A DNA stretch of 36,779 nt, from positions 1 through 36,779 of IMG/VR virus record IMGVR_UViG_3300043251_000087. One strand, 5' to 3'. Under the pieces are notes generated by a model that had not been told where the DNA came from, searched no databases, and worked only from the letters and a program-made list of their open reading frames with translations. Below are positions 2,986 to 28,628 of the stretch, in pieces. The translations under genes were made by a program, and so were the position numbers. This DNA is from a virus. The first letter of the stretch is position 1. Each line of letters opens with the position of its first letter.

Positions 2986-3198
2986 TCATGGATGGGGTCT
3001 TCTAAGCGTCATAACCTCATGTGCGCGACAAACAGGGCATTGCATATGGCGGTCAGTCCTCTCGGCATCGCCGGCATCTATGACTTGCAAAATTCCCTGA
3101 CCGCATGCTGGGCAAGGGACGGCCGCCTTCGGATCGGCCGCCAGGATTTTTGCCGCTTCGATCCAGCGCCGCCGCTGGGCGTTGATGTCTCCGGTCAT
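2986..3198 (-). CDS. Small zinc-ribbon protein, probable immunity partner
   Basis: This 70-residue protein has two CxxC pairs (CPACG and CPVC, about 29 residues apart) forming a probable zinc ribbon, preceded by a short helix (RRRWIEAAKILAADP). Its ATG overlaps the stop of the upstream toxin-like gene as ATGA (3195-3198), so the two are translationally coupled. In polymorphic toxin loci the small gene coupled to the 3' end of a toxin gene usually encodes the immunity protein. That role is inferred from position; the fold itself says only metal binding. Confidence 0.65.
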   Translation of the reverse strand: MTGDINAQRRRWIEAAKILAADPKAAVPCPACGQGILQVIDAGDAERTDRHMQCPVCRAHEVMTLRRPHP

Positions 3199-4172
3199 TG
3201 ATCCATAACTCCCGATCGAAGGACTTTGTCCACAAACTTTCGCGCAGCGTCATACTCGACGGCGGCCGATTCAGCTGAATGGACGCCAGTAGCTCCCGCT
3301 TGCGATGTGTTGAGCCTATATAGTTCTTGCAACACCGTTGCTTGTGTTTCTTGCGGCGTTGCGAACGCGCCCGGTCCCAATGCAAAGCCGTTATTCTTAA
3401 AGTTGGTCATGCCCGATATATACGACGGTATATTCGGCTCGTACTGAATTGTTCGGCCGCCGATCGTAACGGTACTTTCTTGCTCGGCCAAATACGCCGC
3501 TCGAAGTTGCGCAAACTCTTGTGAGCTCAGCACGCTTTGCGCTTCATTGACGGTTATACCTTCGATGGCTGCCGCCAGTCGAGCGCTGTCCGCGGCTCGG
3601 GAGGCATTGACCGATTGTTGGACCGCGGCGGCCTCTTCCTCGGTGATCCTGCCAGTCGCAACAAGTCTTTCCAGGGTTGCCGCCAGGCCGACCGCCGGAG
3701 GGATATCGTTGACAAGTTGAACCTGCCCCGAAGGCGCCTTCTGCCAATTCGGATTGCTGCCGCTCGCCGTGGCGTCCGTCAACGTATCGGACACCCGTTG
3801 AGCGTAGTGGCGCGTCCCCGGCGTATCGCCTGCGGCATGGGACGTGTCTTTCGGCGACCCGCTCCCGTCCTCCGTCGTCCATTGCCCGCCCTTCGAATTT
3901 CCGGCCGGCACCCGCGGCTGATCGGGATTGTACTTATTCAGTGCCGCCCGCAGCTCCGCTTTCGCAAGTACCGCGGCCGCTTCGAAGGCGTTACGGATGT
4001 CAGCGGCAAGCAGCTCGAAATCGCGGCGGATCGCGGCGATTTCGGCGTGGCGCCGCCGCAGCAGCTCGCCCTCGTCCGGGCCCGCCAACGTGCGGATCGC
4101 TTTGGCGATTTCGAGTTGCACGTGCAACGCCCGGGGCACGGCGCTTTCGATGCGCGGCAGCGGAGGCTTCAT
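3195..4172 (-). CDS. Head-2 polymorphic toxin-like protein, unrecognised C-terminal domain
   Basis: The 325-residue protein belongs to the MKPPLP head family, seen five times in this window. Residues 1-80 are a predicted helical head (LEIAKAIRTLAGPDE, then charged helices). Residues 81-100 are the shared linker ending PRVPAGNSKGGQWT. The rest is unique. The start is taken at ATG 4172 because it aligns with the other family members; a GTG at 4202 would add ten residues. The tail contains GGRTIQYEPNIPSYISGM, LGPGAFATPQETQ, a possible active-site-like helix VLQELYRLNTS, and HSAESAAVEYDAARKF. I do not recognise the domain. Its coupling to a zinc-ribbon partner (2986-3198) fits a toxin/immunity pair. 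Confidence 0.7.
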   Translation of the reverse strand: MKPPLPRIESAVPRALHVQLEIAKAIRTLAGPDEGELLRRRHAEIAAIRRDFELLAADIRNAFEAAAVLAKAELRAALNKYNPDQPRVPAGNSKGGQWTTEDGSGSPKDTSHAAGDTPGTRHYAQRVSDTLTDATASGSNPNWQKAPSGQVQLVNDIPPAVGLAATLERLVATGRITEEEAAAVQQSVNASRAADSARLAAAIEGITVNEAQSVLSSQEFAQLRAAYLAEQESTVTIGGRTIQYEPNIPSYISGMTNFKNNGFALGPGAFATPQETQATVLQELYRLNTSQAGATGVHSAESAAVEYDAARKFVDKVLRSGVMDQ

Positions 4173-4900: not shown

Positions 4901-5356
4901 TCATCGTTCTCGAGAGCGCCCCGGTTTCAATTGTCGCCGAAGATTATCGGCTATCGAGCGGAGTTTGGGGTCGGGTCCTTCGTATTGCACTGCCTCAACC
5001 GCATCGCGAATCTTGGCCACTTGATCATCAGACATGCTGCCATCGTTCGCAGGTGCATTCACAATCGAGACTTCAACGTCATCGCCGTTGTGCCGTTTTC
5101 GATAAATGCGTCCTTCCACGAGCATACCGCTTACCAATTCGACATGGTCATGAACCTCTTTCGGCGTCGCTGAAAGGCCAGAGATTTGGACCGAATACGG
5201 CGGTTCCACAGCGTTGATTCCGCCCCAAATCATGGAATCGACCAAAGCGTCAGGGCTCTGGCCGTGCCGAGCCGGCGCACCAATCGAGGCGAGGAGCGCA
5301 TGATAAAAATCGATCACCGTTTTCCATTTTGTGGCATCAAGCTCGATGGTTCGCAT
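4901..5356 (-). CDS. Barstar-family immunity protein
   Basis: The 151-residue protein has the barstar arrangement: an N-terminal strand (MRTIELDATKW), a helix (FYHALLASIGAP), then HGQSPDALVDSMIWGGIN, equivalent to the barstar YGxNLDALWDxL segment that plugs the RNase active site. The C-terminal third is an extra charged extension. It starts five bases after the stop of the barnase-like gene, with AGGA just upstream of ATG 5356. It should bind and inhibit that RNase in the cytoplasm. Family and pairing are mutually supporting, so confidence is high. Confidence 0.85.
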   Translation of the reverse strand: MRTIELDATKWKTVIDFYHALLASIGAPARHGQSPDALVDSMIWGGINAVEPPYSVQISGLSATPKEVHDHVELVSGMLVEGRIYRKRHNGDDVEVSIVNAPANDGSMSDDQVAKIRDAVEAVQYEGPDPKLRSIADNLRRQLKPGRSRER

Positions 5357-5361: not shown

Positions 5362-6183
5362 CTACTCGCCGCGCGGGTTCAGGTTGAGACGATAGAAGCT
5401 GCGGTAATGATTGTTGGTGTAATACATCGCTCCAATACCAGCATCAATCACGATTCTGCCAACGCCTCTGCCGGCGCCAAGTCCCGGCACATCGAAAGCA
5501 ATATACCCGCTCGCGCCAGGAGGTAGAACAGCGCCTGTCTCATAGTGCGGACGGTTCTCGTAGGCATGCGGATACAACGTGCTGAAGTCCTGATTTAATA
5601 TAAGAGTCAGTGCGTCTGCAACATTTTGCTGTTCGTCCGGCAATATCGGACCGTTCAATCCTTTTGGGTCTAACGGATCTTTTCCTGGCGGACGCGCAAT
5701 CGTAAACCCGCGAGGCGTGACCTCGTTCTGTGCAAGCCGCGGACCGTTGTCAAAAGCGTTAGCCTCGCCGGTACCGGTCTCATCCGTCAGCGTGCCGGTA
5801 TCTATTGCGGCGTATCGTTTGGGCGACTCCGACCCAACGCCCGCAGCATTGAAACTATCTGCCGACGATCCGTTGCCACCGTCGCTCGTCCACTGCCCGC
5901 CATCGGGATTGCCGGCGGGCACGCGCGGTTGGTCGACGCTGTATTTTTTCAGCGCCGCCCGCAACTCCGCTTTCGCCAGCATTGCGGCCGCCTCGAAGGC
6001 TTTGTGCAGGTCGCGGGAAAGCGCCTCTAAATCGCGGCGGATCGCGGCGATCTCTGCGCGGCGCTGCCGCAGCAGTTCGTCCTCGTCCGGCCCGGCGAGC
6101 GTGCGGATCGCTTTGGCGATCTCGAGGCGCACGTGCAACGTCTGCGGCACGGCGCTCAAGGTGCGTGGCAGCGGAGGCTTCAT
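5362..6183 (-). CDS. Head-2 polymorphic toxin with barnase-like RNase domain
   Basis: The 273-residue protein has the MKPPLP head (1-80), the linker ending GNPDGGQWT (about 99), a variable spacer, and a C-terminal domain of about 90 residues resembling barnase/RNase N1. Visible family marks are YPHAYENR (about 204-211), GAGRGVGRIV with Arg239 and Arg243, and YYTNNHYRSF with His259. These correspond to barnase Arg83, Arg87 and His102. At the place of barnase Glu73 the sequence reads GYIAFDV, with Ala229 instead of Glu, so activity may be reduced. The start at ATG 6183 aligns with the other heads; the longer open frame reaching into the portal fragment is not a real fusion. The next gene is barstar-like. 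Confidence 0.82.
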   Translation of the reverse strand: MKPPLPRTLSAVPQTLHVRLEIAKAIRTLAGPDEDELLRQRRAEIAAIRRDLEALSRDLHKAFEAAAMLAKAELRAALKKYSVDQPRVPAGNPDGGQWTSDGGNGSSADSFNAAGVGSESPKRYAAIDTGTLTDETGTGEANAFDNGPRLAQNEVTPRGFTIARPPGKDPLDPKGLNGPILPDEQQNVADALTLILNQDFSTLYPHAYENRPHYETGAVLPPGASGYIAFDVPGLGAGRGVGRIVIDAGIGAMYYTNNHYRSFYRLNLNPRGE

Positions 6184-8788: not shown

Positions 8789-10198
8789 CTAGTCCGGGTC
8801 GCCCTGCTGTGACTTTATGACTGGCCCGCGCTCGATGTGCAGATCAATGACCGGGACACGGGAGACCGCTTTTGTCGCGGCACGAAGTTGGTTCGCTCTA
8901 CCTGGCCTCAGGCTAGCGTCTAGGGTCTTAACATCGTAGATCGCGATTACATCACCACTATCATTGCGCAAAACAGCATCTGGCTTGACAGCCTTTCTAC
9001 GGCCACCGTAGTCGGAAGGCAAACTGAATGTGTGCTCAACATCGGAAGGACTAATGCCGCGTATCCGCTCAGCGATTACCGCGGCAGCGAACCGCTTGTG
9101 AATCAAAATTCCATAGAAACTTGGAGATAAGTGCGTCGGAGCAGTCTCGTCGACAACCCTTGCAAGAATTTCTGACAATCTTTTGGTTGTTTCATCGATT
9201 TGCTGAATTCCTGTCCATGCATTTGGCCCATATACAATGTCCCTCGGCGGGCCGGCATATTGCTCACCCTTGGGAACATTTGACGTGTCTGGTCGTCCCT
9301 CGGTTTCCAAAGCGGCATAGCGGGTCTCGGACCTCGAACTTTCGGCGGCAACAGGTGGGAAATTGTATGGAGTCTGACTACCCTCCCCGTCCTTCGGCCG
9401 AAACTTGCCGCCACGGCCTCCTGGGGTCCCGGTCGGCCAGCCGGGATGCTCAGGATCGTCCGAGCTCGCTTTCAGAAGCGCGAGTTTTGCGGATTGCGTC
9501 TCTGCACCCGCGCTATGCCCATTCGCGCCCGTGCGTCCGGTGTTGGCTCCCTGCCCGCCCGCATTCGCCTCGATCGGCACAAAGCCGGTGGCGGTGAGCA
9601 CCATCGGGCGGTCGGCGGCGGCGTTGTCGAAGGGGTCGAGGCCGAGGGCGTCGCGCATCTCGTTGAGCGTGAGCGCACCGACTTTCAGCCGGCCTTCGAG
9701 CACCGTCTCGGGATCGCCTTCGTCCTCGTCGAGCCAATGCAGCTCGAGATCCGGCGAGGCGAATTCCTCCGCCACGATCTCGTCGATCAAATCCTTGACC
9801 CACTCCTTGGTCGGCTCGAGCCCCTCTTCCTCGGCCTGCGCCGACTGGTTGTCGGCGGTGGCGCGGTTCATCGCCTTGGTGGCCCATTGCGGCGGCACCG
9901 AAAAGGCAAAGCAGATGATGCGGGCGAGCCACTCGTCGAAATCGTCCTTGTGCTGCGGCTCCTTGGTCTGCACGACTTTGGCCGCGGTCTCGCCGGGCAC
10001 GAATTTTGCCCGCCGGCGCTTGGCCAGGTCGCCGGCGAATTCGGTGTCCCAATAATCCTGGAACTGCTTGATCTGGTCCGGCGTCCAGCCCTGCGGCACG
10101 CCGATCAGCGCGTCGGGGATCGAGCCTTCGGTGAAATAATCGAGCTGCCAGAGCTGGCGGCGCAGCGCGATGTTGACGGTCATCAACACCTGCTGCAC
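8789..10198 (-). CDS. Orphan portal-toxin cassette, PD-(D/E)xK tail, copy of main CT
   Basis: This 469-codon frame is the 3' two-thirds of the full-length portal-toxin gene at 16490. Portal sequence begins at 10228 (after GRAHRVYG) with no portal N-terminus; the first ATG is 10198. It keeps the linker PEHPGWPTGTPGGRGGKFRP and the nuclease-like tail with VKPDAVLRNDSGDVIAIYDVK. No ribosome binding site stands before 10198, and upstream is the end of an unrelated immunity gene. I infer a silent or weakly expressed cassette. It could recombine with the full portal gene through more than 1 kb of identity. Confidence 0.7.
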   Translation of the reverse strand: MQQVLMTVNIALRRQLWQLDYFTEGSIPDALIGVPQGWTPDQIKQFQDYWDTEFAGDLAKRRRAKFVPGETAAKVVQTKEPQHKDDFDEWLARIICFAFSVPPQWATKAMNRATADNQSAQAEEEGLEPTKEWVKDLIDEIVAEEFASPDLELHWLDEDEGDPETVLEGRLKVGALTLNEMRDALGLDPFDNAAADRPMVLTATGFVPIEANAGGQGANTGRTGANGHSAGAETQSAKLALLKASSDDPEHPGWPTGTPGGRGGKFRPKDGEGSQTPYNFPPVAAESSRSETRYAALETEGRPDTSNVPKGEQYAGPPRDIVYGPNAWTGIQQIDETTKRLSEILARVVDETAPTHLSPSFYGILIHKRFAAAVIAERIRGISPSDVEHTFSLPSDYGGRRKAVKPDAVLRNDSGDVIAIYDVKTLDASLRPGRANQLRAATKAVSRVPVIDLHIERGPVIKSQQGDPD

Positions 10199-12956: not shown

Positions 12957-14024
12957 TTAGTCTGGATCACCGCCCCTGCCTCCTCTTATTCCGCGCGGGC
13001 CGTAAACACGAATATATCTCAATACTTCCCGTTGGATCTTTAGTACCAGTCCATGAATTCTGGGCTCGCTCGACGCCTTAACTTCCTCGATGAGTTCGCG
13101 CGCTTGATCCGGTGTCATCTGCTCAGAGGTTATCTTATTCCTATTCAAGTAGGCTTCAAATAGCTCATCTACCGCCTCGTTGTATTCAATATGCTCTGCG
13201 TTGTTCCTATTAACGCTTGGATCAGCAAGTGTGCCCGACTTCGTCTTATCAAAGACCTCCCATGTTTCCGGCTTGATGTCCTTTTTATTGTAAACCACCT
13301 TCGGAACCCAATGATGCCCCTCACCATATCTCTGATAGCGCACCAGGGCATCATCGGGCCCATCCGATTTATCATTCTCATCATCGGCTGCTGCAATTCT
13401 AGTCCACTGGCCAGCGCCAGGATTGCGCTTGGGCACACGTGGTTCACCAGGGTCGTAACCATATTTTTGAATGAGAGGTGTCCCGTTATTTCGCTTGCGG
13501 AGGCTCGATATATTGGTTTGTTGAGCAACAACTAGTTGTTCACCCCCGCTTTGCTCGCCAGCGTCTTTCGCCCCTTCCCCGCCCGCATTCGCCTCGATCG
13601 GCACATAACCCGTCGCCGTGAGCACCATCGGGCGGTCGGCGGCGGCGTTGTCGAAGGGGTCGAGGCCGAGCGCGTCGCGCATCTCGTTGAGCGTGAGCGC
13701 GCCGACTTTCAGCCGGCTTTCGAGCACCGTCTCGGGATCGCCTTCGTCCTCGTCGAGCCAATGCAGCTCGAGATCGGGCGACGAAAATTCCTCCGCCACG
13801 ATCTCGTCGATCAAATCCTTGACCCATTCCTTGGTCGGCTCGAGCCCCTCCTCTTCGGCCTGCGCCGATTGATTCTCCGCGGTGGCGCGGTTCATCGTCT
13901 TGGTGGCCCATTGCGGCGGCACCGAAAACGCAAAGCAGATGATGCGGGCGAGCCATTCGTCGAAATCGTCCTTGTGCTGCGGCTCCTTGGTCTGGACGAC
14001 CTTTGCCGCGGTCTCGCCGGGCAC
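12957..14024 (-). CDS. Orphan portal-toxin cassette with HHxVP nuclease-like tail
   Basis: The frame carries the portal C-terminal part (from PGETAAKVVQ to YVPIEANAGG) and a distinct tail. Instead of the PEHPGWP linker it has EPRVPKRNPGAGQWT, a variant of the linker used by the MKPPLP head family. The tail contains GEGHHWVPKVVY and NNAEHIEYNEAVDELFEAYL, suggesting an HNH/endonuclease VII-like fold of the GHH type. The portal frame upstream is broken by the palindrome at 14064, and the only start is a GTG at 14024. The cassette is therefore unlikely to make a portal fusion. Confidence 0.65.
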   Translation of the reverse strand: MPGETAAKVVQTKEPQHKDDFDEWLARIICFAFSVPPQWATKTMNRATAENQSAQAEEEGLEPTKEWVKDLIDEIVAEEFSSPDLELHWLDEDEGDPETVLESRLKVGALTLNEMRDALGLDPFDNAAADRPMVLTATGYVPIEANAGGEGAKDAGEQSGGEQLVVAQQTNISSLRKRNNGTPLIQKYGYDPGEPRVPKRNPGAGQWTRIAAADDENDKSDGPDDALVRYQRYGEGHHWVPKVVYNKKDIKPETWEVFDKTKSGTLADPSVNRNNAEHIEYNEAVDELFEAYLNRNKITSEQMTPDQARELIEEVKASSEPRIHGLVLKIQREVLRYIRVYGPRGIRGGRGGDPD

Positions 14025-14235: not shown

Positions 14236-14283
14236 GATACAAACCGTCGATGGGCAATCGGATTTAACTTTGACTCTCAGTCG

Positions 14284-15612: not shown

Positions 15613-15623
15613 AGGAGCTCCAG

Positions 15624-15704
15624 TTATACTCAAAAAGCAAATTGAGTATAATATAGGGGGCCCACTAGGGCAAGAATTATACGCAGGTTGCGAAACGCGT
15701 ATAA
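15624..15704 (-). promoter_or_regulatory. Paired palindromes upstream of nucleotidyltransferase, copy 2
   Basis: The same two inverted repeats as at 7923-8003: arms TTATACTCAA/TTGAGTATAA at 15624-15633 and 15642-15651, and TTATACGC/GCGTATAA at 15677-15684 and 15697-15704. The common TTATAC half-site in four places suggests cooperative repressor binding over an AT-rich promoter. Confidence 0.6.
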
Positions 15705-15714
15705 TAAAATTGCC

Positions 15715-15985
15715 ACTTATTTAACGGCGCCTGCGGAAGGCCCCTTGTGCTGCGGCTCCTTGGTCTGCACCACCTCGGCGGCCCTCTCGCCGGCACGAAC
15801 TTGGTGTGGCGGCGCCCGGCGAGGTCGCCGACGCCCACACCCTTCCCTCCCCGCAAGCGGGAGAGGGTCAGGGAGGGGGTTAGTCCTCCGGACTGGCGAA
15901 TCTGGCCCGGGGTCCAGCTCTGCGGCACGCCGAGCAAGGCGTCGGGGATCAAACCTTCGGTGCAGCAATCGTGCCGCCAAAGCTG
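15715..15985 (-). pseudogene. Degenerate portal gene fragment, copy 2
   Basis: Duplicate of 8014-8284. Diverged portal codons (CCTEGLIPDALLGVPQSW) are interrupted by the element at 15833-15879. It lies between the immunity stop at 15990 and the nucleotidyltransferase control region. Confidence 0.65.
15833..15879. repeat. GC-rich palindromic element, right copy of 8132
   Basis: Same sequence as 8132-8178 inside the second copy of the degenerate portal fragment. Confidence 0.7.
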
Positions 15986-15989
15986 GCGG

Positions 15990-16442
15990 CTACGAACCAT
16001 CCAGGCGACGCGCTAATTCCTCCGCCTGCGGCAAATCGCGCTCAATGTCATGCACAACTTGTAATGACTCGTCCGCGGTCAGGAGTTTTCCCTCTTGCTC
16101 ATCAAAAACGACGCCGCCTGTCGCCCGCGCGTACGCCGTCGCCGCCATCCAAACAGCTATCAGCTCGTCAAAACCCGCTATCCAGGGGAAGGTAACAACA
16201 TACTTCCAACTGTGACCGAAATTAATGTTCTTGTAGGTACTCATCAGATCCGCAGGATCCTCAATCCAACACTGAAAACTCGTTGGTCTGTCATGGAGGT
16301 GGGCGGTCAGAGTCCCACCGTCTTCATCAAACAGGACATCGTGCGCCAATCGCAAAGGCAAGCCTTCAGCGTCTAACGACCGCTGCCAGCTAGAAATTGA
16401 ATCAAGTCGCGAGTCGGAGAGAACGTTGATTTCGACTGACAT
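15990..16442 (-). CDS. Putative immunity protein to PD-(D/E)xK portal toxin, copy 2
   Basis: This 150-residue acidic protein is identical to that at 8289-8741, and here follows the full-length portal-toxin gene by 47 bases. The family signature is AWMAA.AYARATGGV..D, shared with 26206 and 26763. As the only immunity gene directly behind the intact portal fusion, it is the one that would protect the lysogen if the tail is active. The role is inferred from pairing in two independent places. Confidence 0.74.
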   Translation of the reverse strand: MSVEINVLSDSRLDSISSWQRSLDAEGLPLRLAHDVLFDEDGGTLTAHLHDRPTSFQCWIEDPADLMSTYKNINFGHSWKYVVTFPWIAGFDELIAVWMAATAYARATGGVVFDEQEGKLLTADESLQVVHDIERDLPQAEELARRLDGS

Positions 16443-16489
16443 CTTATTCCCTCATCCGCTTCTAGTACGCCCTGGCGTCATAGTTTTGA

Positions 16490-18736
16490 CTAGTCCGGGT
16501 CGCCCTGCTGTGACTTTATGACTGGCCCGCGCTCGATGTGCAGATCAATGACCGGGACACGGGAGACCGCTTTTGTCGCGGCACGAAGTTGGTTCGCTCT
16601 ACCTGGCCTCAGGCTAGCGTCTAGGGTCTTAACATCGTAGATCGCGATTACATCACCACTATCATTGCGCAAAACAGCATCTGGCTTGACAGCCTTTCTA
16701 CGGCCACCGTAGTCGGAAGGCAAACTGAATGTGTGCTCAACATCGGAAGGACTAATGCCGCGTATCCGCTCAGCGATTACCGCGGCAGCGAACCGCTTGT
16801 GAATCAAAATTCCATAGAAACTTGGAGATAAGTGCGTCGGAGCAGTCTCGTCGACAACCCTTGCAAGAATTTCTGACAATCTTTTGGTTGTTTCATCGAT
16901 TTGCTGAATTCCTGTCCATGCATTTGGCCCATATACAATGTCCCTCGGCGGGCCGGCATATTGCTCACCCTTGGGAACATTTGACGTGTCTGGTCGTCCC
17001 TCGGTTTCCAAAGCGGCATAGCGGGTCTCGGACCTCGAACTTTCGGCGGCAACAGGTGGGAAATTGTATGGAGTCTGACTACCCTCCCCGTCCTTCGGCC
17101 GAAACTTGCCGCCACGGCCTCCTGGGGTCCCGGTCGGCCAGCCGGGATGCTCAGGATCGTCCGAGCTCGCTTTCAGAAGCGCGAGTTTTGCGGATTGCGT
17201 CTCTGCACCCGCGCTATGCCCATTCGCGCCCGTGCGTCCGGTGTTGGCTCCCTGCCCGCCCGCATTCGCCTCGATCGGCACAAAGCCGGTGGCGGTGAGC
17301 ACCATCGGGCGGTCGGCGGCGGCGTTGTCGAAGGGGTCGAGGCCGAGGGCGTCGCGCATCTCGTTGAGCGTGAGCGCACCGACTTTCAGCCGGCCTTCGA
17401 GCACCGTCTCGGGATCGCCTTCGTCCTCGTCGAGCCAATGCAGCTCGAGATCCGGCGAGGCGAATTCCTCCGCCACGATCTCGTCGATCAAATCCTTGAC
17501 CCACTCCTTGGTCGGCTCGAGCCCCTCTTCCTCGGCCTGCGCCGACTGGTTGTCGGCGGTGGCGCGGTTCATCGCCTTGGTGGCCCATTGCGGCGGCACC
17601 GAAAAGGCAAAGCAGATGATGCGGGCGAGCCACTCGTCGAAATCGTCCTTGTGCTGCGGCTCCTTGGTCTGCACGACTTTGGCCGCGGTCTCGCCGGGCA
17701 CGAATTTTGCCCGCCGGCGCTTGGCCAGGTCGCCGGCGAATTCGGTGTCCCAATAATCCTGGAACTGCTTGATCTGGTCCGGCGTCCAGCCCTGCGGCAC
17801 GCCGATCAGCGCGTCGGGGATCGAGCCTTCGGTGAAATAATCGAGCTGCCAGAGCTGACGGCGCAGCGCGATGTTGACGGTCATCAGCACCTGCTGCACC
17901 GGCGAGAAGCCGTAGACCCGGTGGGCGCGCACGTTGCGCGGCCGGTAGACGATGTCGCGCGCCGAATAATTGACCGCCGGCAGGCCTTTGAGCACCTGCT
18001 GATAGGCCGGCGGATAGACCATTCCCCCACCCTTCCCTCCCCCGCTTGCGGGGGAGGATAGGAGGGGGTCCCAATACGGCTGCGGCGTGCGGCCCCAATC
18101 GTCGATCACGCGCTTGATGGTCGCGCCGTCGAGCTGCTGCAGCGCGCAGAGCTGGCCGGAGCGCGTGCGCTGGCAATACAGCGTCGCCGCGTCGATGACG
18201 AACATGTCCTCGAGCAGCGCCCGCAGCCAGGTCTTCCAGCGCGTGATGCCGTCGGGCTTTTGCAAGAAAGCCTCGATGCCGGCGATGCGCGCGGTCACGT
18301 CGGGATCGATCGCGGCGCTGCGACGCTTGGATTTTGCATCGCGCGGCCGGATGCGCCAGCGCTGGCGCTCCATCTGGTCCTTGCGTGTCTCGATGACCAG
18401 CCGCAACAGATCGTAGGCGTCGGCGAAACCGCGCAGCTCGGCAAAACCGATGCTCTCGTAGGCACGCGGCCGGGTGACGAGGTTGTAGCCGGGCGGGAAG
18501 TCGAACCGCCTGCCGGCGACGTCGGGCGGCGCGATCGGCCGCATCGGGTCGAGCGGGCCGAACCAGTCGGCGCCCGAGCCGCGCGCAATGCCATTGCTTG
18601 ACGTGGCTTGGCTCGACGTGCCTTGGCTCGACGTGCCTTGGCTCGACGTGCTTTGGCTTTGGCCGTAGGACACCTGGATCTGATACGGCGACAGCGGCCA
18701 AGTCGGCTGGCCGGCGCCGCGCACCTGTTCGCTCAT
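16490..18736 (-). CDS. Phage portal protein with C-terminal PD-(D/E)xK toxin-like domain
   Basis: The 748-residue protein is taken from ATG 18736 (MSEQVRGAG), with AGGA eight bases upstream; a longer frame to 18943 runs through a palindromic element and is not needed. Residues 27-46 are four 5-residue repeats. From about 70 to 510 is the portal fold (RLVIETRKDQMERQRWRI, DIVYRPRNVRAHRVYGFSPV, WLARIICFAFSVPPQW), forming the dodecameric DNA channel at one capsid vertex. Linker PEHPGWPTGTPGGRGGKFRP lies at about 528-547. The ~200-residue tail has VKPDAVLRND and AIYDVK (about 681-701), a PD-(D/E)xK nuclease motif. Portal proteins do not need such a tail. A palindrome at 18023-18068 adds residues in frame. 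An immunity gene follows. Confidence 0.85.
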   Translation of the reverse strand: MSEQVRGAGQPTWPLSPYQIQVSYGQSQSTSSQGTSSQGTSSQATSSNGIARGSGADWFGPLDPMRPIAPPDVAGRRFDFPPGYNLVTRPRAYESIGFAELRGFADAYDLLRLVIETRKDQMERQRWRIRPRDAKSKRRSAAIDPDVTARIAGIEAFLQKPDGITRWKTWLRALLEDMFVIDAATLYCQRTRSGQLCALQQLDGATIKRVIDDWGRTPQPYWDPLLSSPASGGGKGGGMVYPPAYQQVLKGLPAVNYSARDIVYRPRNVRAHRVYGFSPVQQVLMTVNIALRRQLWQLDYFTEGSIPDALIGVPQGWTPDQIKQFQDYWDTEFAGDLAKRRRAKFVPGETAAKVVQTKEPQHKDDFDEWLARIICFAFSVPPQWATKAMNRATADNQSAQAEEEGLEPTKEWVKDLIDEIVAEEFASPDLELHWLDEDEGDPETVLEGRLKVGALTLNEMRDALGLDPFDNAAADRPMVLTATGFVPIEANAGGQGANTGRTGANGHSAGAETQSAKLALLKASSDDPEHPGWPTGTPGGRGGKFRPKDGEGSQTPYNFPPVAAESSRSETRYAALETEGRPDTSNVPKGEQYAGPPRDIVYGPNAWTGIQQIDETTKRLSEILARVVDETAPTHLSPSFYGILIHKRFAAAVIAERIRGISPSDVEHTFSLPSDYGGRRKAVKPDAVLRNDSGDVIAIYDVKTLDASLRPGRANQLRAATKAVSRVPVIDLHIERGPVIKSQQGDPD
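18023..18068. repeat. Palindromic element inserted in frame in the portal gene
   Basis: The core is CCCTCCCCCGCTTGCGGGGGAGG. Where the orphan copy near 12360 encodes PFAAADGTTIYPP, this gene encodes PYWDPLLSSPASGGGKGGGMVYPP. The element thus replaced a short stretch and kept the frame open, adding a Gly/Ser-rich loop to the portal protein. Confidence 0.8.
18600..18659. repeat. 15-bp tandem repeat, four copies, portal N-terminus
   Basis: Four head-to-tail copies of a unit close to GACGTGCCTTGGCTC encode repeated SQGTS-type pentapeptides (residues about 27-46 of the portal protein). Changes in copy number would keep the frame and only lengthen or shorten a disordered N-terminal arm. Confidence 0.8.
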
Positions 18737-19128
18737 CGTGGTCCTGTTCTGTCTGGTCGTTGTCGCGGCTGACGGCGCACGGAAAAAATTCCCCTCCCCC
18801 TTGTGGGGAGGGGTTAGGGGTGGGGGCCGGGATGCTGCCGTCAAAATACTTGCGGCAGACCCCGGCCCGGCGACCCACGCCGCCCTTTCGCTATCCGCTG
18901 TCCGGGAGGGACATGCGTTCCGCCGGAGCTGAAGTCGGAACACACGGGCGTTGCAGCGGTGCGCGAAGGCAAGCGTGGATCAGGCCCGCGCAAAGCGGGC
19001 CGTCGCGTACCGCCGCGGCTCGCGGCCGCGGCGGCACGACTGAAAATCCAATGCTGAAAGTGGACTTCTAATTCCGGCTGACGCCAAACGAAGCTACCAA
19101 CCATAGGCACCGCAGGCCGTCCAGGCCG
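18737..19128. other. Non-coding gap with two strong hairpins before portal
   Basis: I see no gene in this 392-base stretch. It holds the palindromic element at 18791-18828 and two perfect hairpins: GGCCCGC/GCGGGCC (18983-19001, 5-base loop) and CCGCCGCGG/CCGCGGCGG (19010-19034, 7-base loop). Neither is followed by a clear U-run. They follow the upstream membrane immunity gene on the coding strand and may limit read-through into the portal gene. Confidence 0.5.
18791..18828. repeat. Palindromic element upstream of portal start
   Basis: CCCCTCCCC-CTTGT-GGGGAGGGG with a TTAGGGGTGGGGG flank, of the same family as the in-gene elements. It lies in the leader about 55 bases upstream of the portal ATG. 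Confidence 0.7.
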
Positions 19129-19860
19129 TCAATGATTGCACTGCCGAGAATTGTCGTAACGATCAAGCGGGCAAATGGTGACAAAATAAAAATGCCGGAA
19201 CATGCGGGAATCGCGAGAAACCGGTGTGCCTGATACTTCCGACGACATGTGATAACCCTCGAATGGTCCAGCACAAATCCCGGAACGGAGCCCGGTCGCA
19301 TCGCTCTCATCATAGGCGACCCCAATACCGCAAGGCGCAGTGTCAGCCCAGCCCCACACCTTGAATCGCGGCTTGTCGGCGGGCAGCCTGGATATCTCGG
19401 CCGTGTAACGAGGATACATGACGGAAAGATAGACGTAGTCCCCGCCGCGCCTGAAGGCATCGAGATTGGCTGCCGCAACAATCGCGGTCAGCAGCAAAAT
19501 GAGCGTGGATAACAGCCGACGCCAAGTGTGTTTGAGTCCGTGCTCGACACAGTTCATCGCGGCAATAATGGCGACGGTTACGCCCGCCCCGCCCCAGAAC
19601 AAAAACAACAGGGGAATGAAGAATGCGTATAGAAAATATGGACCGGCAATCCCAAAGGCAGTGGCCAGCGGACAGGCCTTCGCAATGTCGGCGCCGTCGC
19701 AAGCAAAAGTGGCAAGGCCGAAAGGGACAAAGACAATATACAGGAGGGATTTGAGGAATGGACCCGGATAAGCAATCAAGCAGGTCAGCGCACAGCCAGC
19801 AGCGGTAGCGACCGGCCAATAGAGAATTCGGTCGTCAGTCGCGCCTTGCACGGCAGTCAT
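19129..19860 (-). CDS. Membrane protein, probable immunity partner of 19857 toxin
   Basis: The 243-residue protein has about four hydrophobic segments in its first half (from DRILYWPVATAAGCALTCLI to LSTLILLLTAIVAAANL), then a soluble C-terminal part with YVYLSVMYPRYTAEI, DKPRFKVWGW, GIAYDES and FRHFYFVTIC. The same layout occurs at 22585, 23311 and 24361 and as a truncated relic at 4339. Its ATG overlaps the toxin stop (ATGA at 19857-19860), so it is translationally coupled. A membrane immunity protein suggests that the paired toxin tail acts at the inner membrane. That is inference from pairing. Confidence 0.72.
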   Translation of the reverse strand: MTAVQGATDDRILYWPVATAAGCALTCLIAYPGPFLKSLLYIVFVPFGLATFACDGADIAKACPLATAFGIAGPYFLYAFFIPLLFLFWGGAGVTVAIIAAMNCVEHGLKHTWRRLLSTLILLLTAIVAAANLDAFRRGGDYVYLSVMYPRYTAEISRLPADKPRFKVWGWADTAPCGIGVAYDESDATGLRSGICAGPFEGYHMSSEVSGTPVSRDSRMFRHFYFVTICPLDRYDNSRQCNH

Positions 19861-20930
19861 CGCCCCGGCCGAATACGTCCCGATTGGTACAATCTATAGC
19901 CCAGTTTCGTATCTTCGACATCCTGCTTCGCCGAATGAGTGTAGACGTCGTCCAGCCGGTCATTACGGCCGAATCGGGAAAAATTTAGGGCATAATCGTC
20001 TATTGTCGAGAGGACATCGTTCTGATCCAAGCCTGCTGCCGCGCCGTAAACGCCGATCATGATGTTCAGATAGTGGCGGTAATCGATAACACGACTGAAG
20101 TCGAAACGTTCGGCATCCAGAGACCCTCCAGGGGAAACAGGAAGCAGCAACGAATAAAGGATCCCCCGAGCCACAGACGGTGTAACGTCCCAAGGCCCGA
20201 CCTGATCTTGCGGGCTCATCAACGCGCTCAACGCTGTCCCCGAGAATGGGTTTGCCAAGCCCGCCTGAACATATCTTTCCGGTGGCATGCTAGCAGGCCG
20301 AAAAATAGGTTGACCCTGATTGTCGTGGATCGGGACGCCATCACTGTCCACAAATTCCACTGGGGCCCTTGGATGATCCTCAGGAAGTGTATACGACCAA
20401 ATATTCTGACGCCGCGGATCATGTACAGTCAGAAGAGTGTAGAGCACACCAGGAAGGTTACCCTGAATTGACGTGTCGTACGCGGCCGTGTTGGCCGCGT
20501 TGCGGCTTGTCTCGTCCGTACGCGTATTAGTCTCGGCCTGAGCGTATTGCACGCGCGCACCAGAGACCTCGCTCGTGTTGTCGTCTGAAAGATGCGATGC
20601 CTCGCCGCTCCCGGCGACAGGCTCACTCCCGCTCGTCCACTGCCCACCGTCGGGGTTTCCGGCCGGCACGCGCGGCTGGTCGGGGCTGTATTTTTTCAGC
20701 TCCGATTGCAGCTCCGCCATCGCCAGTGCCGGCAATTCTTCGCCGAGCTTGCGAACGCCGCGCGCGAGCACATCCAAATCGCGGCGGATCGCGGCGATCT
20801 CCGCGCGCCGCTGCCGCAGCAATTCGTCCTCGTCCGGCCCGGCGAGCGTGCGGATCGCCTTGGCGATCTCGAGCTGGGTGTGCAAGTTCCGCGGCACGGC
20901 GGTCAAAATGCGAGGTCCGTTGGGGTTCAT
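19857..20930 (-). CDS. Head-2 polymorphic toxin-like protein, membrane-paired tail
   Basis: The 357-residue protein begins MNPNGPRILTAVPRNLH, has the helical head (to about 80) and the linker ending GNPDGGQWT at 99. The tail includes PRAPVEFVDSDGVPIHDNQGQPIF, MPPERYVQAGLANPFSGT, LDAERFDFSRVIDYRHYLNIM, and the end motif DDVYTHSAKQDVED...YRLYQSGRIR. The gene at 24934 has the same tail, and remnants lie at 4631 and 23884. It overlaps the terminase stop by ATGA, so it is embedded in the packaging operon and is the best candidate for a member expressed with virion genes. No catalytic motif is recognised. Confidence 0.72.
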   Translation of the reverse strand: MNPNGPRILTAVPRNLHTQLEIAKAIRTLAGPDEDELLRQRRAEIAAIRRDLDVLARGVRKLGEELPALAMAELQSELKKYSPDQPRVPAGNPDGGQWTSGSEPVAGSGEASHLSDDNTSEVSGARVQYAQAETNTRTDETSRNAANTAAYDTSIQGNLPGVLYTLLTVHDPRRQNIWSYTLPEDHPRAPVEFVDSDGVPIHDNQGQPIFRPASMPPERYVQAGLANPFSGTALSALMSPQDQVGPWDVTPSVARGILYSLLLPVSPGGSLDAERFDFSRVIDYRHYLNIMIGVYGAAAGLDQNDVLSTIDDYALNFSRFGRNDRLDDVYTHSAKQDVEDTKLGYRLYQSGRIRPGR

Positions 20931-22462: not shown

Positions 22463-22584
22463 TCGCGTTCTGTCGTTCTGTTGTTCGGTGAATCACACTC
22501 CTGCGCCAGAGAAAGCGGCGCTCACTGTTGAGCCAAGGATGGACAGAATTCCGAATCCGAATGCAAGCGGCCGTTGGCCAACGA

Positions 22585-23283
22585 CTAGCAGGTGAGAACG
22601 AAATAGAAGTGGCCGAACGCACGGGAAACATACTCAACTTCGACGGTGCCGATACGTTCGTCTGTTACCCATCGGGTGCGAAACACCAACGCGCCGCTCT
22701 CGTCATAGGCTATACCCGTGCCGCACGGTCCGTAGAAGTACCGTTGCCACACCTTGAACCGCGGCTCATCGGCTGGCAGTTGCGCCACTTCGACCATGTA
22801 GCCGGGATATCGGGCAAGCAGATAAATGTAGTCGCCAGCGGTATGTCCTGCGCGCCAGAAAAACTCGACATTGTACAGCGCAACCAGCGAAACCAACGGC
22901 AAAATCACGATGGACAAGAGCCGGCGCCAAGAGTGCTTAAACCCCCTTTCCACTCCCTCCATGACGGCAATCAAAGGAACAACCACACCCGCGCCAAGCC
23001 AGACTCCAAAGGCCAGAGGACCTATTATCAGGGAGAGCAATCCAGCGAGAATGAATGGACCGGTAATCCATGCCAACGAGCAGACAACGCCGCCACTCTT
23101 ACAGGCCGCAGCGTCAATAATGAGGGAGACGAAAGTGACGAACGGCGTGAACGGGCCACAAATGAGCTGAACGAGGAACGTATCGGACCAGGCGAGTATA
23201 CAGATCACCGGACAGCCAATGGCGATAGCAAGAGGCCAATAGAGAACTCGGTCGTTATCTGCCCCTTGCACGCCGGACCTCAT
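22585..23283 (-). CDS. Membrane protein, immunity family paralogue
   Basis: The 232-residue protein begins MRSGVQGADNDRVLYWPLAIA and has several hydrophobic segments, followed by the family C-terminus: GDYIYLLARYPGYMVEVAQL, DEPRFKVWQRYFYGPCG, GIAYDESGA and FGHFYFVLTC. It is a close relative of 19129 and 23311. It stands alone between another paralogue and the terminase gene, without a toxin directly before it, so it is probably an orphan immunity gene. Such orphans can protect against toxins of related phages. This is inference. Confidence 0.65.
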   Translation of the reverse strand: MRSGVQGADNDRVLYWPLAIAIGCPVICILAWSDTFLVQLICGPFTPFVTFVSLIIDAAACKSGGVVCSLAWITGPFILAGLLSLIIGPLAFGVWLGAGVVVPLIAVMEGVERGFKHSWRRLLSIVILPLVSLVALYNVEFFWRAGHTAGDYIYLLARYPGYMVEVAQLPADEPRFKVWQRYFYGPCGTGIAYDESGALVFRTRWVTDERIGTVEVEYVSRAFGHFYFVLTC

Positions 23284-23310: not shown

Positions 23311-23871
23311 CTAGCAATCATGGCCGACAAAGTAGAAATGGCCGAAGATCGGTGTGTAGCCGTACACGCAATTTGCATCGGTCAAGGCGGCTCGTCTCTT
23401 CCACGCGTCGGAGCGCTCGGTCGCCGGCCGCGTGATCTCATCGCTTGCATCGTACACGACCCCGCGCGATACCGCTAAAAATCCACCCCAATCCTGGAAC
23501 ATGAACCGCGGCTCGTCAGTAGGCAGCTTCGATATCTCGATGAGATAGATCGGTAGCATGGCGTAAAAATGGACGTAGTCTCCGGCCCCTTGTCCGGCGC
23601 GCCAAGCAAAGCCCGGATTGAGACCCGCCACGAGCACGGTCAGCGGCAACACAATCGTCGACAAGAACCGGCGCCACGTCCGCAGATAGAGCCATGCCAA
23701 ACAAATCAAAGTAGCGACTCCAGCTGATAAGGCCCACAAGGCAATGACCAACGGACCGCCATAGAATGATAAGTCAAACGGCCCCGCCCAAGCCAAAATA
23801 AAGGCGATAGGCCAAGCCACAGAGAGAATGATCGGCCAGTAGAGGATGCGATCTGGACGACCAAATTGCAT
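23311..23871 (-). CDS. Membrane protein, immunity family paralogue
   Basis: The 186-residue protein starts MQFGRPDRILYWPIIL, with three or four hydrophobic segments, WRRFLSTIVLPLTVLVAGLN, then GDYVHFYAMLPIYLIEISKL, DEPRFMFQDW, GVVYDAS and FGHFYFVGHDC. It follows the remnant of a membrane-paired toxin tail (stop at 23884) by 12 bases, so it was the partner of that now headless toxin. It may persist as an orphan immunity gene. Confidence 0.66.
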   Translation of the reverse strand: MQFGRPDRILYWPIILSVAWPIAFILAWAGPFDLSFYGGPLVIALWALSAGVATLICLAWLYLRTWRRFLSTIVLPLTVLVAGLNPGFAWRAGQGAGDYVHFYAMLPIYLIEISKLPTDEPRFMFQDWGGFLAVSRGVVYDASDEITRPATERSDAWKRRAALTDANCVYGYTPIFGHFYFVGHDC

Positions 23872-23883: not shown

Positions 23884-24101
23884 CTATCGTCCGGCCGCGA
23901 TTCGACCGGACTCGTAAAGATCGTAACCCATCTTCATGTCGAGCACGTCCCGCTTTGGCAAATGGGTGTAGATTTCATCCATTGGCTCATGGAAGCTGGA
24001 AGAATACTTTGCATAGGTGTCTGCAAACCACATACCGTCCTCAAATTTAATTCCCGCTGCGGCAAAATAAAGGCCAATCACAAGGTTTGCATAGTCGCGG
24101 T
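23884..24101 (-). pseudogene. Headless remnant of membrane-paired toxin tail
   Basis: It keeps about 70 residues: CYRDYANLVIGLYFAAAGI, then MDEIYTHLPKRDVLDMKMGY and YESGRIAAGR, which match the ends of the genes at 19857 and 24934. In place of the head it is joined at about 24102 to a duplicated fragment of the terminase 5' end. The open frame to 24252 reads the terminase fragment in a wrong frame and is not a real gene. Confidence 0.68.
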
Positions 24102-24290
24102 AGCAGCGTGTGCCGCTGCGACCTTCCCAGGAGCTCTTGCGCGTCCTGCTGCCTGGCAGTGCGCTTGAATTGGGAGTCTTGAGACGGCTTGCGCTCGGTT
24201 CCCGTTCGCGTTCTGTCGTTTTGTTGTTCGGTGAATCACACTCCTGCGCCAAGGGGCGCTTACGGTTAAGCCAAGATCAAGAGAGCTAAC
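24102..24290 (-). pseudogene. Duplicated terminase 5' fragment and leader
   Basis: The coding strand repeats the terminase leader and its first ~35 codons (PSQ.SQFKRTARQQDAQ.LLG, then RSQRHTLL), with scattered differences from 22361-22530. The start ATG is changed to ACG. It breaks off just before the Walker A codons and joins a toxin-tail remnant. It marks a past duplication that copied the cassette together with its neighbour. Confidence 0.72.
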
Positions 24291-24360: not shown

Positions 24361-24921
24361 CTAACAAAAGGTCGCGAAATAGAAATGTCCGAATGCGCGG
24401 GAGTTGCCGTGCACGTCCACCGTGCCAACAAGTCCATCGCTCGTCGAGCGGTGCCTGGACGCAATCGCGTCGCTTTCATCGTAGGCAATCCCGCTGCCGC
24501 AAGGCCCGGCGAAATGCCATTGCCACGCCTTAAAGCGCGGTTCCGGCAGGTCCGATATCTCGGCCATGTACCAAGGATACAAGGCAAAGAGGTGAACATA
24601 ATCGCCTGACGCGGCAGCCGACTGCCAAGCCCATCCGAGATTCACTCCGGTTACGACCATGACCAGCAGCAGGATCAGCTTCGACGGGAAACGGCGCCAT
24701 TCGCGTTGGTAGGCCGAGACGGCAAGCGCCAGGGCATCGAGATAAGTCAAGCCGGCCCAGGCGACAAAGACGACGAGCAATATCGCGCCACAGATGAAGA
24801 GGACAATGATTCGATCGCTTACAATATCGATAAGAATACGGACACCAAAAACGGACAATGGTCCAAGCACCGCAAAGATCCACGTCCAAATTCGCACGCG
24901 ACTATCAAGTGTGCTCTGCAT
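24361..24921 (-). CDS. Membrane protein, immunity partner of 24934 toxin
   Basis: The 186-residue protein has a diverged N-terminus (MQSTLDSRVRIWTWIFAVLG) with hydrophobic segments, then the family pattern WRRFPSKLILLLVMVVTGVN, GDYVHLFALYPWYMAEISDL, EPRFKAWQW, GIAYDESDA and FGHFYFATFC. It starts 12 bases after the stop of the toxin-like gene at 24934, which carries the matching tail. That makes it the cognate immunity candidate. Confidence 0.7.
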   Translation of the reverse strand: MQSTLDSRVRIWTWIFAVLGPLSVFGVRILIDIVSDRIIVLFICGAILLVVFVAWAGLTYLDALALAVSAYQREWRRFPSKLILLLVMVVTGVNLGWAWQSAAASGDYVHLFALYPWYMAEISDLPEPRFKAWQWHFAGPCGSGIAYDESDAIASRHRSTSDGLVGTVDVHGNSRAFGHFYFATFC

Positions 24922-24933: not shown

Positions 24934-26040
24934 CTATCGTCTCAACCGAATGCGCCCGGACTCGTACAATCTATAGCCCAATTTCGTGTCTTCGACATCC
25001 TGCTTGGCTGAGTGCGTGTAGACTTCGTCCATCAACTCTTCGGTCGCGAATGTCGATTTGCGGGAGGCGTAGAAATCTATGGCGGAGAGGACGTCTTCGC
25101 GGTTTAAACCCGCAGCCGCAGAATAAACACCGATCATTATGTTTAGATAGTGGCGATAGTCGAGAACGTAATTCCCATCGAACCGTTCAGCGTCCAACAA
25201 TCCTCCGGGCGCGACTGGAAGTAATGCCGAATAAAGTGCGACTACCGCACCTAAGACCTTGGCGTCCGAAACCCCATCACCCGTCCCAGGCTGCAGCAAT
25301 CCAGCGGATTGCGCGCCCAAAAATCGATTTGCAAGTCCAGCTCGGAGATATCTTTCGGGCGGAAGGTCATCCGGTCTGGAGATGGGATTATCCAGGATGT
25401 CGAGAACGGGTTGGCCATCACTGTCTACGAATCGCACCGGATGCCTTGGATGATCCGCCACTATCTCATTCGACCAAATCAAGTCACGAGGTATTGTCGA
25501 TTGGACAGTGTGGAGCACGCTCTGAAGATTGGTCAGAATTTGCGTGTCTTGCGTGGCGCTGTCTGTCGTACCGCCGCTCCTGCCCACCGCCGCCGGACTC
25601 GTGCCTGGAATTTCCAGCGACGCATACCGTATGCGCGTTTCAGCATTTTCATTAACGGCATCTGCTTGACCATCCTTGGGCCGGAATCGACCTCCCTGGC
25701 GGTCTGGCGCTCCAGCCGGCCAACCTGGATGCTCTGGGTCATCGACTGCTGCTTTCGTGGTTCCACGGCGGTCCGGCACCCGCGGATGGTCGGGGTTATA
25801 TTTTCTCGGTGTCCCGCACAGCTCCGCTTTCACCAGCGCCGAAGCCTCCTTGAAGGCCCTCGGAATCTCGCGGGCAAGCGCCTCCAGGTCTTGGCGGATG
25901 GCGGCGATCTCAGCACGGCGCTGGCGCAGCGGATCATCCCCATTGGGCGCCGTCAGCGTGCGGACGGCCTTGGCGATTTCGAGCTGCGCGTGCAGCGTTC
26001 GCGGCACGGCGCTCTCGATACGCGGCAGCGGTGGTTTCAT
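24934..26040 (-). CDS. Head-2 polymorphic toxin-like protein with composite linker
   Basis: The 368-residue protein starts at ATG 26040 (MKPPLPRIESAVPRTLH). The head is normal, but the first linker is damaged (DHPRVPDRRGTTKAAV) and followed at once by the portal-type linker DDPEHPGWPAGAPDRQGGRFRP. The protein therefore carries both linkers in series, as if a tail had moved from a portal fusion to this head. The tail is the membrane-paired type: DLPPERYLRAGLANRFLG, LDAERFDGNYVLDYRHYLNI, DEVYTHSAKQDVED and YRLYESGRIRLRR. A longer frame upstream only reads a cold-shock gene fragment. A membrane immunity gene follows. Confidence 0.72.
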   Translation of the reverse strand: MKPPLPRIESAVPRTLHAQLEIAKAVRTLTAPNGDDPLRQRRAEIAAIRQDLEALAREIPRAFKEASALVKAELCGTPRKYNPDHPRVPDRRGTTKAAVDDPEHPGWPAGAPDRQGGRFRPKDGQADAVNENAETRIRYASLEIPGTSPAAVGRSGGTTDSATQDTQILTNLQSVLHTVQSTIPRDLIWSNEIVADHPRHPVRFVDSDGQPVLDILDNPISRPDDLPPERYLRAGLANRFLGAQSAGLLQPGTGDGVSDAKVLGAVVALYSALLPVAPGGLLDAERFDGNYVLDYRHYLNIMIGVYSAAAGLNREDVLSAIDFYASRKSTFATEELMDEVYTHSAKQDVEDTKLGYRLYESGRIRLRR

Positions 26041-26762: not shown

Positions 26763-27206
26763 TCAGTGCCGCGACTGCAGCTCACGCAACATCCTTGGCA
26801 TGTCACGCACGATTTTTCTTGCTGCTTGTCTAGCCTCCTCCACAGGAAGGATCGACCCATCCTCACCATCAAACACGACGCCGTTCGTGGCGCTGGCATA
26901 AGCGGCTGCGGCCGTCCACGCAGCCTCAAATTCATGGAAATCGCCCCTCCAGCGGAACCCAAGCACAAATTTCCATTCGTGGCCGAAATCGATATCGGAA
27001 TTTTCACTTATAAATTCGTCAGCTGAATCGTGATAGCATTCAAAACCAGTCAGCTTTCCATTTAATCGCGCGGGTAAAAATCCTGAATGCCATCGAAAGT
27101 CTGTGTCATCCAACTTGACGGCGAAGCCCTCGGCATCGATCGCCGCCTGCCACTCAGCAATTGATCCTAATTGCCGGTCGGACAAGACAAACATCTCCAT
27201 CGCCAT
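26763..27206 (-). CDS. Immunity protein for head-2 PD-(D/E)xK toxin
   Basis: The 147-residue acidic protein starts at ATG 27206, with GGAGG about ten bases upstream. It has MFVLSDRQLGS, DAEGFAVKLDD, HEWKFVLGFRWRGD and AYASATNGVVFDGEDGSI, the family pattern of 15990. It follows the toxin-like gene by 33 bases. The same immunity family behind the same tail type on a different head supports the pairing. Confidence 0.72.
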   Translation of the reverse strand: MAMEMFVLSDRQLGSIAEWQAAIDAEGFAVKLDDTDFRWHSGFLPARLNGKLTGFECYHDSADEFISENSDIDFGHEWKFVLGFRWRGDFHEFEAAWTAAAAYASATNGVVFDGEDGSILPVEEARQAARKIVRDMPRMLRELQSRH

Positions 27207-28391: not shown

Positions 28392-28424
28392 TAGGTCTGC
28401 CCTTTGCGACGCGCGGCGTCGCGG

Positions 28425-28628
28425 TCACTCGAACGCGATATTGATGGCGCGAAGCCCGCGGTGGGTGCGATCGATCTCGAAGCTGACCGGCCGGCCCTCG
28501 AAAAGCGCGCCGGCATTCGCCGGCAGGTCGGTGCGATGCACGAACACGTCGCCCGAGCCGTCGTCGCGGGTGAAAAAGCCGTAGCCTTTGGTGTCGTTGA
28601 AAAACTTGACCTTGCCGGTGACGCTCAC
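28425..28628 (-). CDS. Cold-shock domain protein (CspA family)
   Basis: The 67-residue protein is a single cold-shock domain that binds single-stranded nucleic acid. RNP1 is KGYGFFTRD and RNP2 is DVFVH; the start is GTG 28628, with GGAGGA eight bases upstream. Length is normal for the family. It is the first gene of the leftward module after the early operon, and its 3' part was copied to 26073-26203. A role as RNA chaperone or regulator for the phage is possible but not shown. Confidence 0.88.

What the first reader, a model, noticed from the sequence alone, without database searches (positions are those of the whole stretch)
24934..26040. Composite linker shows tail exchange between the two head systems
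This head-2 protein has the remains of its own linker (DHPRVPD) followed immediately by the portal-type linker PEHPGWPAGAP..GGRFRP. Conversely, the portal cassette at 12957 uses EPRVPKRNPGAGQWT, a head-2-type linker. Both systems thus seem to trade tails at the linker, which would be the recombination joint.
Basis: seen in the sequence. Interest (0 to 1): 0.68.

Follow-up and report, generated by a model that had tools for sequence, protein, structure and literature searches.

The report
Phage toxin tails swapped at linkers
A bacterial virus carries a row of toxin tails attached to its head-assembly proteins; the odd double linker in one of them marks where a new tail was spliced in, but that tail came from the same kind of protein and not, as first thought, from the virus's portal protein.

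Summary
Gene 24934-26040(-) encodes a head-2 N-domain, the stub of its own A-type linker (KYNPDHPRVP), six bridge residues, a full B-type linker (KAAVDDPEHPGWPAGAPDRQGGRFRPKDG) and an Ntox44-like tail.

The linker is a recombination joint. A near-identical phage (L011) matches this gene over its N-domain, loses similarity at the linker, and still holds the last ~70 bp of this tail downstream of a different one. Tails also cross carriers: a head-2 protein (L022) and a portal (L134) share a 95%-identical RNase A-type tail plus downstream immunity DNA, with homology starting at the linker's first codons.

This composite is not evidence of portal exchange. Linkers are not carrier-specific (head-2 61 A/14 B; portal 42 A/22 B). 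Its B linker is closest to head-2 B linkers. Its tail family was not found directly behind a portal, but occurs behind a near-identical B linker in three bacterial genomes. The 12957 linker is a variant mainly found on portals.

Overall: a polymorphic-toxin array on phage head proteins (portal, head-2 and, in relatives, prohead protease), with a barnase/barstar pair in the window. It is a new variant of a known kind; delivery and toxicity are untested.

The parts
24934..26040 (-). Head-2 toxin-tail gene with composite linker (368 aa)
   Evidence: Open frame, N-domain and linkers aligned; tail weakly Ntox44-like, PF15607 E 0.05, below cutoff
25804..26040 (-). Head-2 N-terminal domain (residues 1-79, predicted helical hairpin, low confidence)
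   Evidence: 93.5% DNA identity to L011 over csp fragment, N-domain and stub; AF2 pLDDT about 40-65 here
25774..25803 (-). Stub of the A-type linker, KYNPDHPRVP
   Evidence: Alignment with four other head-2 genes; similarity to L011, L021, L028 and others ends within these codons
25756..25773 (-). Bridge DRRGTT, no clear homologue; the left joint of the cassette
   Evidence: Gap between A homology (ends at query 436-438) and B-block homology (starts at query 450-456)
25669..25755 (-). Full B-type linker KAAVDDPEHPGWPAGAPDRQGGRFRPKDG
   Evidence: 80% DNA to L034 head-2, 79% to L012 head-2, 69% to the window's own portal; same APDRQGGRFRPKD in L255, L257, L266
24937..25668 (-). Toxin-like tail (Ntox44-like cluster)
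   Evidence: Tail cluster of 20; Pfam PF15607 in 5 of 16 members, best E 0.0086; AF2 pLDDT 80.7, no PDB fold match
24361..24921 (-). Membrane protein, probable immunity gene of this tail
   Evidence: Directly downstream; about 95-99% identical in L011; no Pfam/NCBIfam family
24102..24251 (-). Duplicated 5' end of the terminase gene, right edge of the inserted block
   Evidence: 93% copy of 22359-22508; base-level junction at 24102
23884..24101 (-). 3' remnant of the displaced older tail
   Evidence: 99% identical to the 3' part of intact genes in L021 and L028
22585..23871 (-). Two membrane proteins (23311-23871, 22585-23283), probable immunity genes left by displaced cassettes
   Evidence: Retained downstream of the remnant, collinear with L021/L028
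26046..26202 (-). Duplicate of the 3' end of an upstream gene (cold-shock-protein-like by eye), left edge of the inserted block
   Evidence: 92% copy of 28398-28554; about 90-98% to L011, lower to L021
27240..28391 (-). Head-2 gene, A linker, tail with RPDAIL...IYDIKT motif
   Evidence: L011 portal carries the same tail family, 65% aa, and homologous downstream gene, 67% DNA over 1011 nt
26763..27206 (-). Probable immunity gene of 27240
   Evidence: Inside the 1011-nt match to the L011 portal cassette
19857..20930 (-). Head-2 gene, intact A linker, same tail family as 24934
   Evidence: 53% identity over the protein
5362..6183 (-). Head-2 gene, A linker, barnase-type ribonuclease tail
   Evidence: PF00545 E 8e-7, above cutoff; same tail on L067 portal
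4901..5356 (-). Barstar-type immunity gene for 5362
   Evidence: PF01337 E 1.4e-5, above cutoff
3195..4172 (-). Head-2 gene, A linker, unidentified tail
16490..18943 (-). Intact portal gene with B linker and toxin-like tail
   Evidence: PF04860 E 9e-15, phrog_2662 E 2e-71
12957..14024 (-). N-truncated portal cassette with PRVPK-type A linker and another tail
   Evidence: the same tail sits on the intact portal of the 99.7% identical contig L010/L015
10957..12330 (-). N-truncated portal cassette, B linker; followed by Imm-NTF2-2 gene 10266-10979
   Evidence: PF04860; PF15631 E 1e-8
8789..10198 (-). N-truncated portal cassette identical in tail to 16490
   Evidence: 6216-10228 equals 13917-17929 at 99.93%

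Best explanation
The window is the head-gene region of a phage carrying an array of polymorphic-toxin cassettes. Each cassette is linker + toxin tail + immunity gene, attached to a carrier that is either the portal protein or a small head-2 protein. New cassettes enter at the linker and push older ones downstream, where they persist as remnants with their immunity genes. The composite linker at 24934 is the left joint of one such insertion: a B-linker cassette joined an A-linker head-2 gene just 3' of its PRVP codons and out of register, so both linkers remain in series. The whole composite block was later moved into the window's array from a relative of L011, displacing an L021/L028-type tail. 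Shown: the joint, the displaced remnants, and exchange of tails between portal and head-2 elsewhere. Inferred: that the composite's B cassette came from a head-2-type donor; that the tails are toxins carried in the virion; that the linker is kept because it also works as a protein, as a hinge or a cleavage site.
For: (1) L011 matches the composite gene at 93.5% DNA from upstream to the PRVP codons, about 98-100% over most of the N-domain and about 80% in the stub, then loses similarity. Identity resumes at L011:5126 = window 25009 and continues at 93.9% for 919 nt. The last ~70 nt of the composite tail survive in L011 behind a different A-linker tail. (2) L021 and L028 are collinear with the window up to the csp duplicate and again, at 99%, from 24102; they hold intact the tail whose 3' end is only a remnant in the window. 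(3) L022 head-2 and L134 portal: 94.9% aa over 195 residues of tail, DNA 92% over linker and tail and 87% over the next 736 nt, homology beginning at the K-Y codons of the linker and none before; both tails are PF18431 RNAse_A_bac. (4) Over 27 portal/head-2 pairs with related tails, DNA identity is 0.23-0.34 upstream and 0.73-0.81 from -15 nt on. (5) Same tail family already behind a near-identical B linker in L255, L257, L266. (6) Cognate pair barnase/barstar.
Against: The direct parent of the composite was not found; its B block has no close DNA relative (at most 80%), so the donor carrier is inferred. Linker identity alone cannot show recombination, because the protein motif is under selection: about 70-75% DNA identity in the linker is also seen between cassettes with unrelated tails. 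IMG/VR contigs are assemblies, and repeats can be misjoined. No toxicity, virion or cleavage data exist. The tail is only weakly Ntox44-like (5 of 16 members match weakly) and has no PDB fold match.
Confidence: 0.8

Rival explanations
1. One reading: the B linker and tail of 24934 came from a portal cassette, so the composite is a direct record of portal to head-2 tail exchange.
For: B linkers are on many portals of the same phages, including this window; portal/head-2 tail exchange does occur elsewhere.
Against: Nearest B blocks are on head-2 (L034, L012, L013, L054). Four-fold silent sites: composite versus portal B 0.17, versus other head-2 B 0.28, expectation 0.31. The tail family was not found directly behind a portal but is behind a B linker with a short N-terminal stub in three bacterial genomes.
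Confidence: 0.1
2. Both linkers in series are an old, normal state of one head-2 lineage; nothing was recombined recently.
For: Other head-2 genes also have A or A remnants before B: L037 15576 (both intact), L037 9977, L012 4975, and perhaps L009 2623.
Against: Only 1 of 14 head-2 B genes has both linkers intact, each case is joined at a different point, and L011 and L021/L028 show replacement at DNA level.
Confidence: 0.1
3. The linker is shared only because the protein needs it (cleavage site, hinge or binding site); recombination joints merely happen to lie there because domain boundaries tolerate joins.
For: PR(V/I)P...GG.W(T) is nearly invariant over unrelated carriers; B linkers of portal and head-2 have saturated silent sites (0.34 versus 0.31 expected), so the peptide and not the DNA is conserved.
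Against: A linkers keep excess silent-site identity (0.50) between portal and head-2, and the L022/L134 homology begins exactly at the linker. The two explanations are compatible.
Confidence: 0.35
4. Assembly artefact: repeats of head-2 and portal pieces were misjoined.
For: The window holds near-identical 4-kb copies (6216-10228 and 13917-17929).
Against: An independent contig (3300043205_000037) contains the composite gene at 100%; the two 4-kb copies differ at about 3 positions; L011, L021 and L028 come from other contigs.
Confidence: 0.04

Closest known systems
MuF polymorphic toxins of temperate phages (PMC5576092)
   Same: Toxin C-termini on a head-associated phage protein encoded near portal and terminase, with small immunity genes; cassettes can be shared with other toxin systems
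   Different: No MuF domain found in the scanned window proteins; carriers are the portal itself, a small head-2 protein and, in relatives, the prohead protease, joined by a common linker
Portal- or MuF-fused effectors and polyvalent proteins (PMC5512222, PMC9503650)
   Same: Portal proteins with C-terminal enzymatic domains such as PBECR RNase or 2H, predicted to be injected
   Different: Here with immunity genes, orphan arrays and interchangeable tails on several carriers
CDI/Rhs orphan toxin-immunity arrays (PMC4927057)
   Same: New CT/immunity modules displace older ones downstream; orphans keep homology to the carrier and can be redeployed
   Different: Carrier is a phage head protein, and the joint is a short PRVP..GGQWT or HPGWP..GGKFRPK linker

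Membership tests
Polymorphic toxin system | Conserved N-terminal carrier with variable C-terminal toxin domains | tested here: met
   Five head-2 and four portal copies with differing tails; barnase PF00545 in window, RNAse_A_bac PF18431 in relatives
Polymorphic toxin system | Cognate immunity gene directly downstream | tested here: met
   Barstar PF01337 after the barnase gene, Imm-NTF2-2 PF15631 after portal cassette 10957
Polymorphic toxin system | Recombination with standalone or orphan cassettes | tested here: met
   L011, L021/L028 and L010 comparisons
Polymorphic toxin system | Toxicity neutralised by immunity protein | not testable with these tools
   Needs expression assay
MuF toxins | MuF domain N-terminal to the toxin | tested here: not met
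   Pfam scans of the portal and head-2 proteins show Phage_portal or nothing; MuF-like hit (below cutoff) only in a Brevundimonas phage portal relative
MuF toxins | Gene next to portal/terminase in a tailed phage | tested here: met
   Terminase 20927-22462 and portal 16490-18943
Ntox44 (tail of 24934) | Match above curated cutoff of PF15607 | tested here: not met
   14.4 bits versus cutoff 24; weak matches in 5 of 16 relatives, best E 0.0086
CDI/Rhs | CdiA or Rhs N-terminal part | tested here: not met
   None in Pfam scans of carriers
Phage portal protein | Portal profile above cutoff | tested here: met
   16490-18943, PF04860 55 bits versus 39

The most novel reading that the evidence does not exclude
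One linker family defines a mobile linker-toxin-immunity cassette that docks onto several unrelated phage head proteins (portal, prohead protease, head-2), so a phage can switch both its toxin and the virion part that carries it; the linker may also be the site where the toxin is released.
Probability: 0.4. Interest if true: 0.78.

Novelty: new variant of a known kind. Interest (0 to 1): 0.6.

Why it matters
Polymorphic toxins on phage head proteins are known mainly for MuF. Here tails with their immunity genes move between several head carriers at a defined short joint, and related phage contigs show before, after and displaced states. That makes the model of cassette displacement, proposed for CDI and Rhs, directly readable in phages. 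It also gives a marker (PRVP..GGQWT or HPGWP..GGKFRPK) for finding such toxins in alphaproteobacterial prophages.

Tried and rejected
Fold search of the full composite model (mean pLDDT 62) and of its tail (80.7): no PDB match with E at or below 0.001. Profile search of solved structures: none. NCBIfam on window tails, head-2 and immunity genes: nothing. Known phages: head-2 protein absent, portal core only up to 50% identity. A frame-shifted A-linker inside the composite bridge, suggested by the alignment, was rejected because the same bases align better with the B block of other head-2 genes. The papers searched contain no description of the linker motif. One ORF (L015 7591) was first classed as portal and corrected to head-2; the apparent 97% portal/head-2 pairs it gave were discarded. 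The largest tail cluster (68 ORFs) is single-linkage and probably merges several families, so the 7-of-17 count is indicative. The nearest-neighbour test on linkers is not corrected for phylogeny.

Full report
OBSERVATION. The window is a complete IMG/VR record of 36,779 bases. Gene 24934-26040(-) has the reported composite linker. Its N-domain is shared with four further head-2 genes in the window, and its B linker with the portal gene 16490-18943 and two of the three N-truncated portal cassettes. The head-2 N-domain matches no family in Pfam or PHROGs and the protein has no match in 50,697 phage records, so 'head' is only a label from its position next to terminase and portal.

ARE THE LINKERS CARRIER-SPECIFIC? 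No. Pattern and protein scans of IMG/VR plus bacterial contigs gave 195 unique linker ORFs: head-2 61 A and 14 B, portal 42 A and 22 B, other carriers 55 A and 1 B. Of 19 'other' carriers sharing an EPFQIW motif, 18 match the protease region of L137, which is a Peptidase_S78 prohead protease with an A linker and a tail. A and B look like variants of one motif (K-x-x-x-D-x-P ... P-A-G ... G-G-x-W/F). Linkers still carry some carrier signature: the nearest neighbour has the same carrier in 77% of cases against 48-53% expected.

IS THE LINKER A RECOMBINATION JOINT? Yes, on three lines of evidence. First, the closest relative, L011, shares the region upstream and the N-domain (93.5% DNA), loses similarity at the linker, and regains it at window 25009. 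L011 keeps the last ~70 bases of the composite's tail as a remnant behind another A-linker tail and a truncated membrane gene, followed by the same downstream gene. So in L011 a cassette entered at the linker and displaced a tail like that of the window. Second, a head-2 protein (L022) and a portal (L134) carry the same RNAse_A_bac tail: 94.9% aa, with the homology running 736 nt past the tail. DNA homology starts at the K-Y codons of the linker and is absent before. Third, over 27 portal/head-2 pairs with related tails, DNA identity steps from 0.23-0.34 upstream to 0.73-0.81 at the linker.

WHERE DID THE COMPOSITE COME FROM? Not visibly from a portal. The B block is nearest to head-2 B blocks (80, 79 and 77% DNA against 69% for the window's portal). 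Silent sites show no recent kinship with portal B linkers: 0.17, where composition alone predicts 0.31. The tail cluster (20 ORFs) is on head-2 plus one unclassed carrier, not on a portal. A wider search found the tail family on head-2 genes and on a B linker with a short stub in three genomes from the family of a Xanthobacteraceae MAG, with the same APDRQGGRFRPKD; in the one examined (L257) the same kind of membrane gene follows. One ORF, L106 5928, has portal, A, tail, head-2, A, tail in one frame; there too the tail follows head-2. The donor was probably a B-linker cassette of head-2 type. The donor itself was not found.

HOW IT GOT INTO THIS ARRAY. L021 and L028 are collinear with the window except for a block from the csp-like duplicate (about 26200) to 24102. 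There the window has csp 3' end, composite gene, membrane gene and 150 nt of a terminase gene; the junction at 24102 is resolved to the base. L021 and L028 instead have an intact head-2 gene whose tail 3' end survives in the window as 23884-24101. The block is L011-like (mostly 90-98% on both sides of L011's own replacement). So the composite gene was imported as a block and displaced an older tail, whose presumed immunity genes remain.

PORTAL SIDE. Contig 3300043205_000037 (L010, L015) is 99.7% identical to the window, but its intact portal carries the tail that is an orphan (12957) in the window. The window has an extra copy of a 4,013-bp piece (99.93% identical to 6216-10228) that gives the intact portal the tail of orphan 8789. 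This resembles redeployment of an orphan cassette as discussed for CDI and Rhs (PMC4927057), with joints in portal coding DNA. Misassembly is not excluded.

FUNCTION. Barnase (PF00545) with barstar (PF01337) directly downstream, and an Imm-NTF2-2 gene after another cassette, argue for toxin-immunity pairs. Portal fusions to RNase-like domains and MuF toxins are published (PMC5512222, PMC9503650, PMC5576092). A Brevundimonas phage portal 50% identical to this one ends in a MuF-like domain, just below Pfam's cutoff, which suggests that toxin tails may have replaced MuF; this is inference. The linker peptide is conserved while B silent sites are saturated, so it probably also has a protein role such as hinge or cleavage site. 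Delivery in the virion and toxicity are not shown.

VERDICT. Observation confirmed. 'Linker is the joint' and 'tails pass between the two carriers' are supported by other genes. 'This composite shows portal exchange' and '12957 uses a head-2 linker' are not supported.

Noticed in passing
window 6216-10228 and 13917-17929: Near-identical 4-kb copies (99.93%); a 99.7% identical contig has one copy and a different tail on its intact portal, as if an orphan tail was redeployed.
   Followed up: partly
window 4901-6183: Head-2 protein with barnase-type tail followed by a barstar gene; the same barnase tail is on a portal in L067.
   Followed up: yes
L137:8725-10494: Prohead protease (Peptidase_S78) with the same A linker and a C-terminal tail; many related ORFs in L110, L125, L147.
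   Followed up: partly
L150:2884-5208 (Brevundimonas phage Polewnik): Portal about 50% identical to the window's, with a C-terminal MuF-like domain where the window has a toxin tail.
   Followed up: partly
window 6583-7932 and 14284-15633: Nucleotidyltransferase (NTP_transf_8) plus DUF1488 gene sitting between portal cassettes, in two identical copies; role unknown.
   Followed up: no
L106:5928-8000: One open frame with portal part, A linker, tail, head-2 part, A linker and a second tail: a head-to-tail fusion of both systems.
   Followed up: no
L022:about 6980-7440: The DNA downstream of the RNAse_A tail also encodes a protein close to the window's barstar-like gene 4901-5356, so immunity genes may accumulate.
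   Followed up: no
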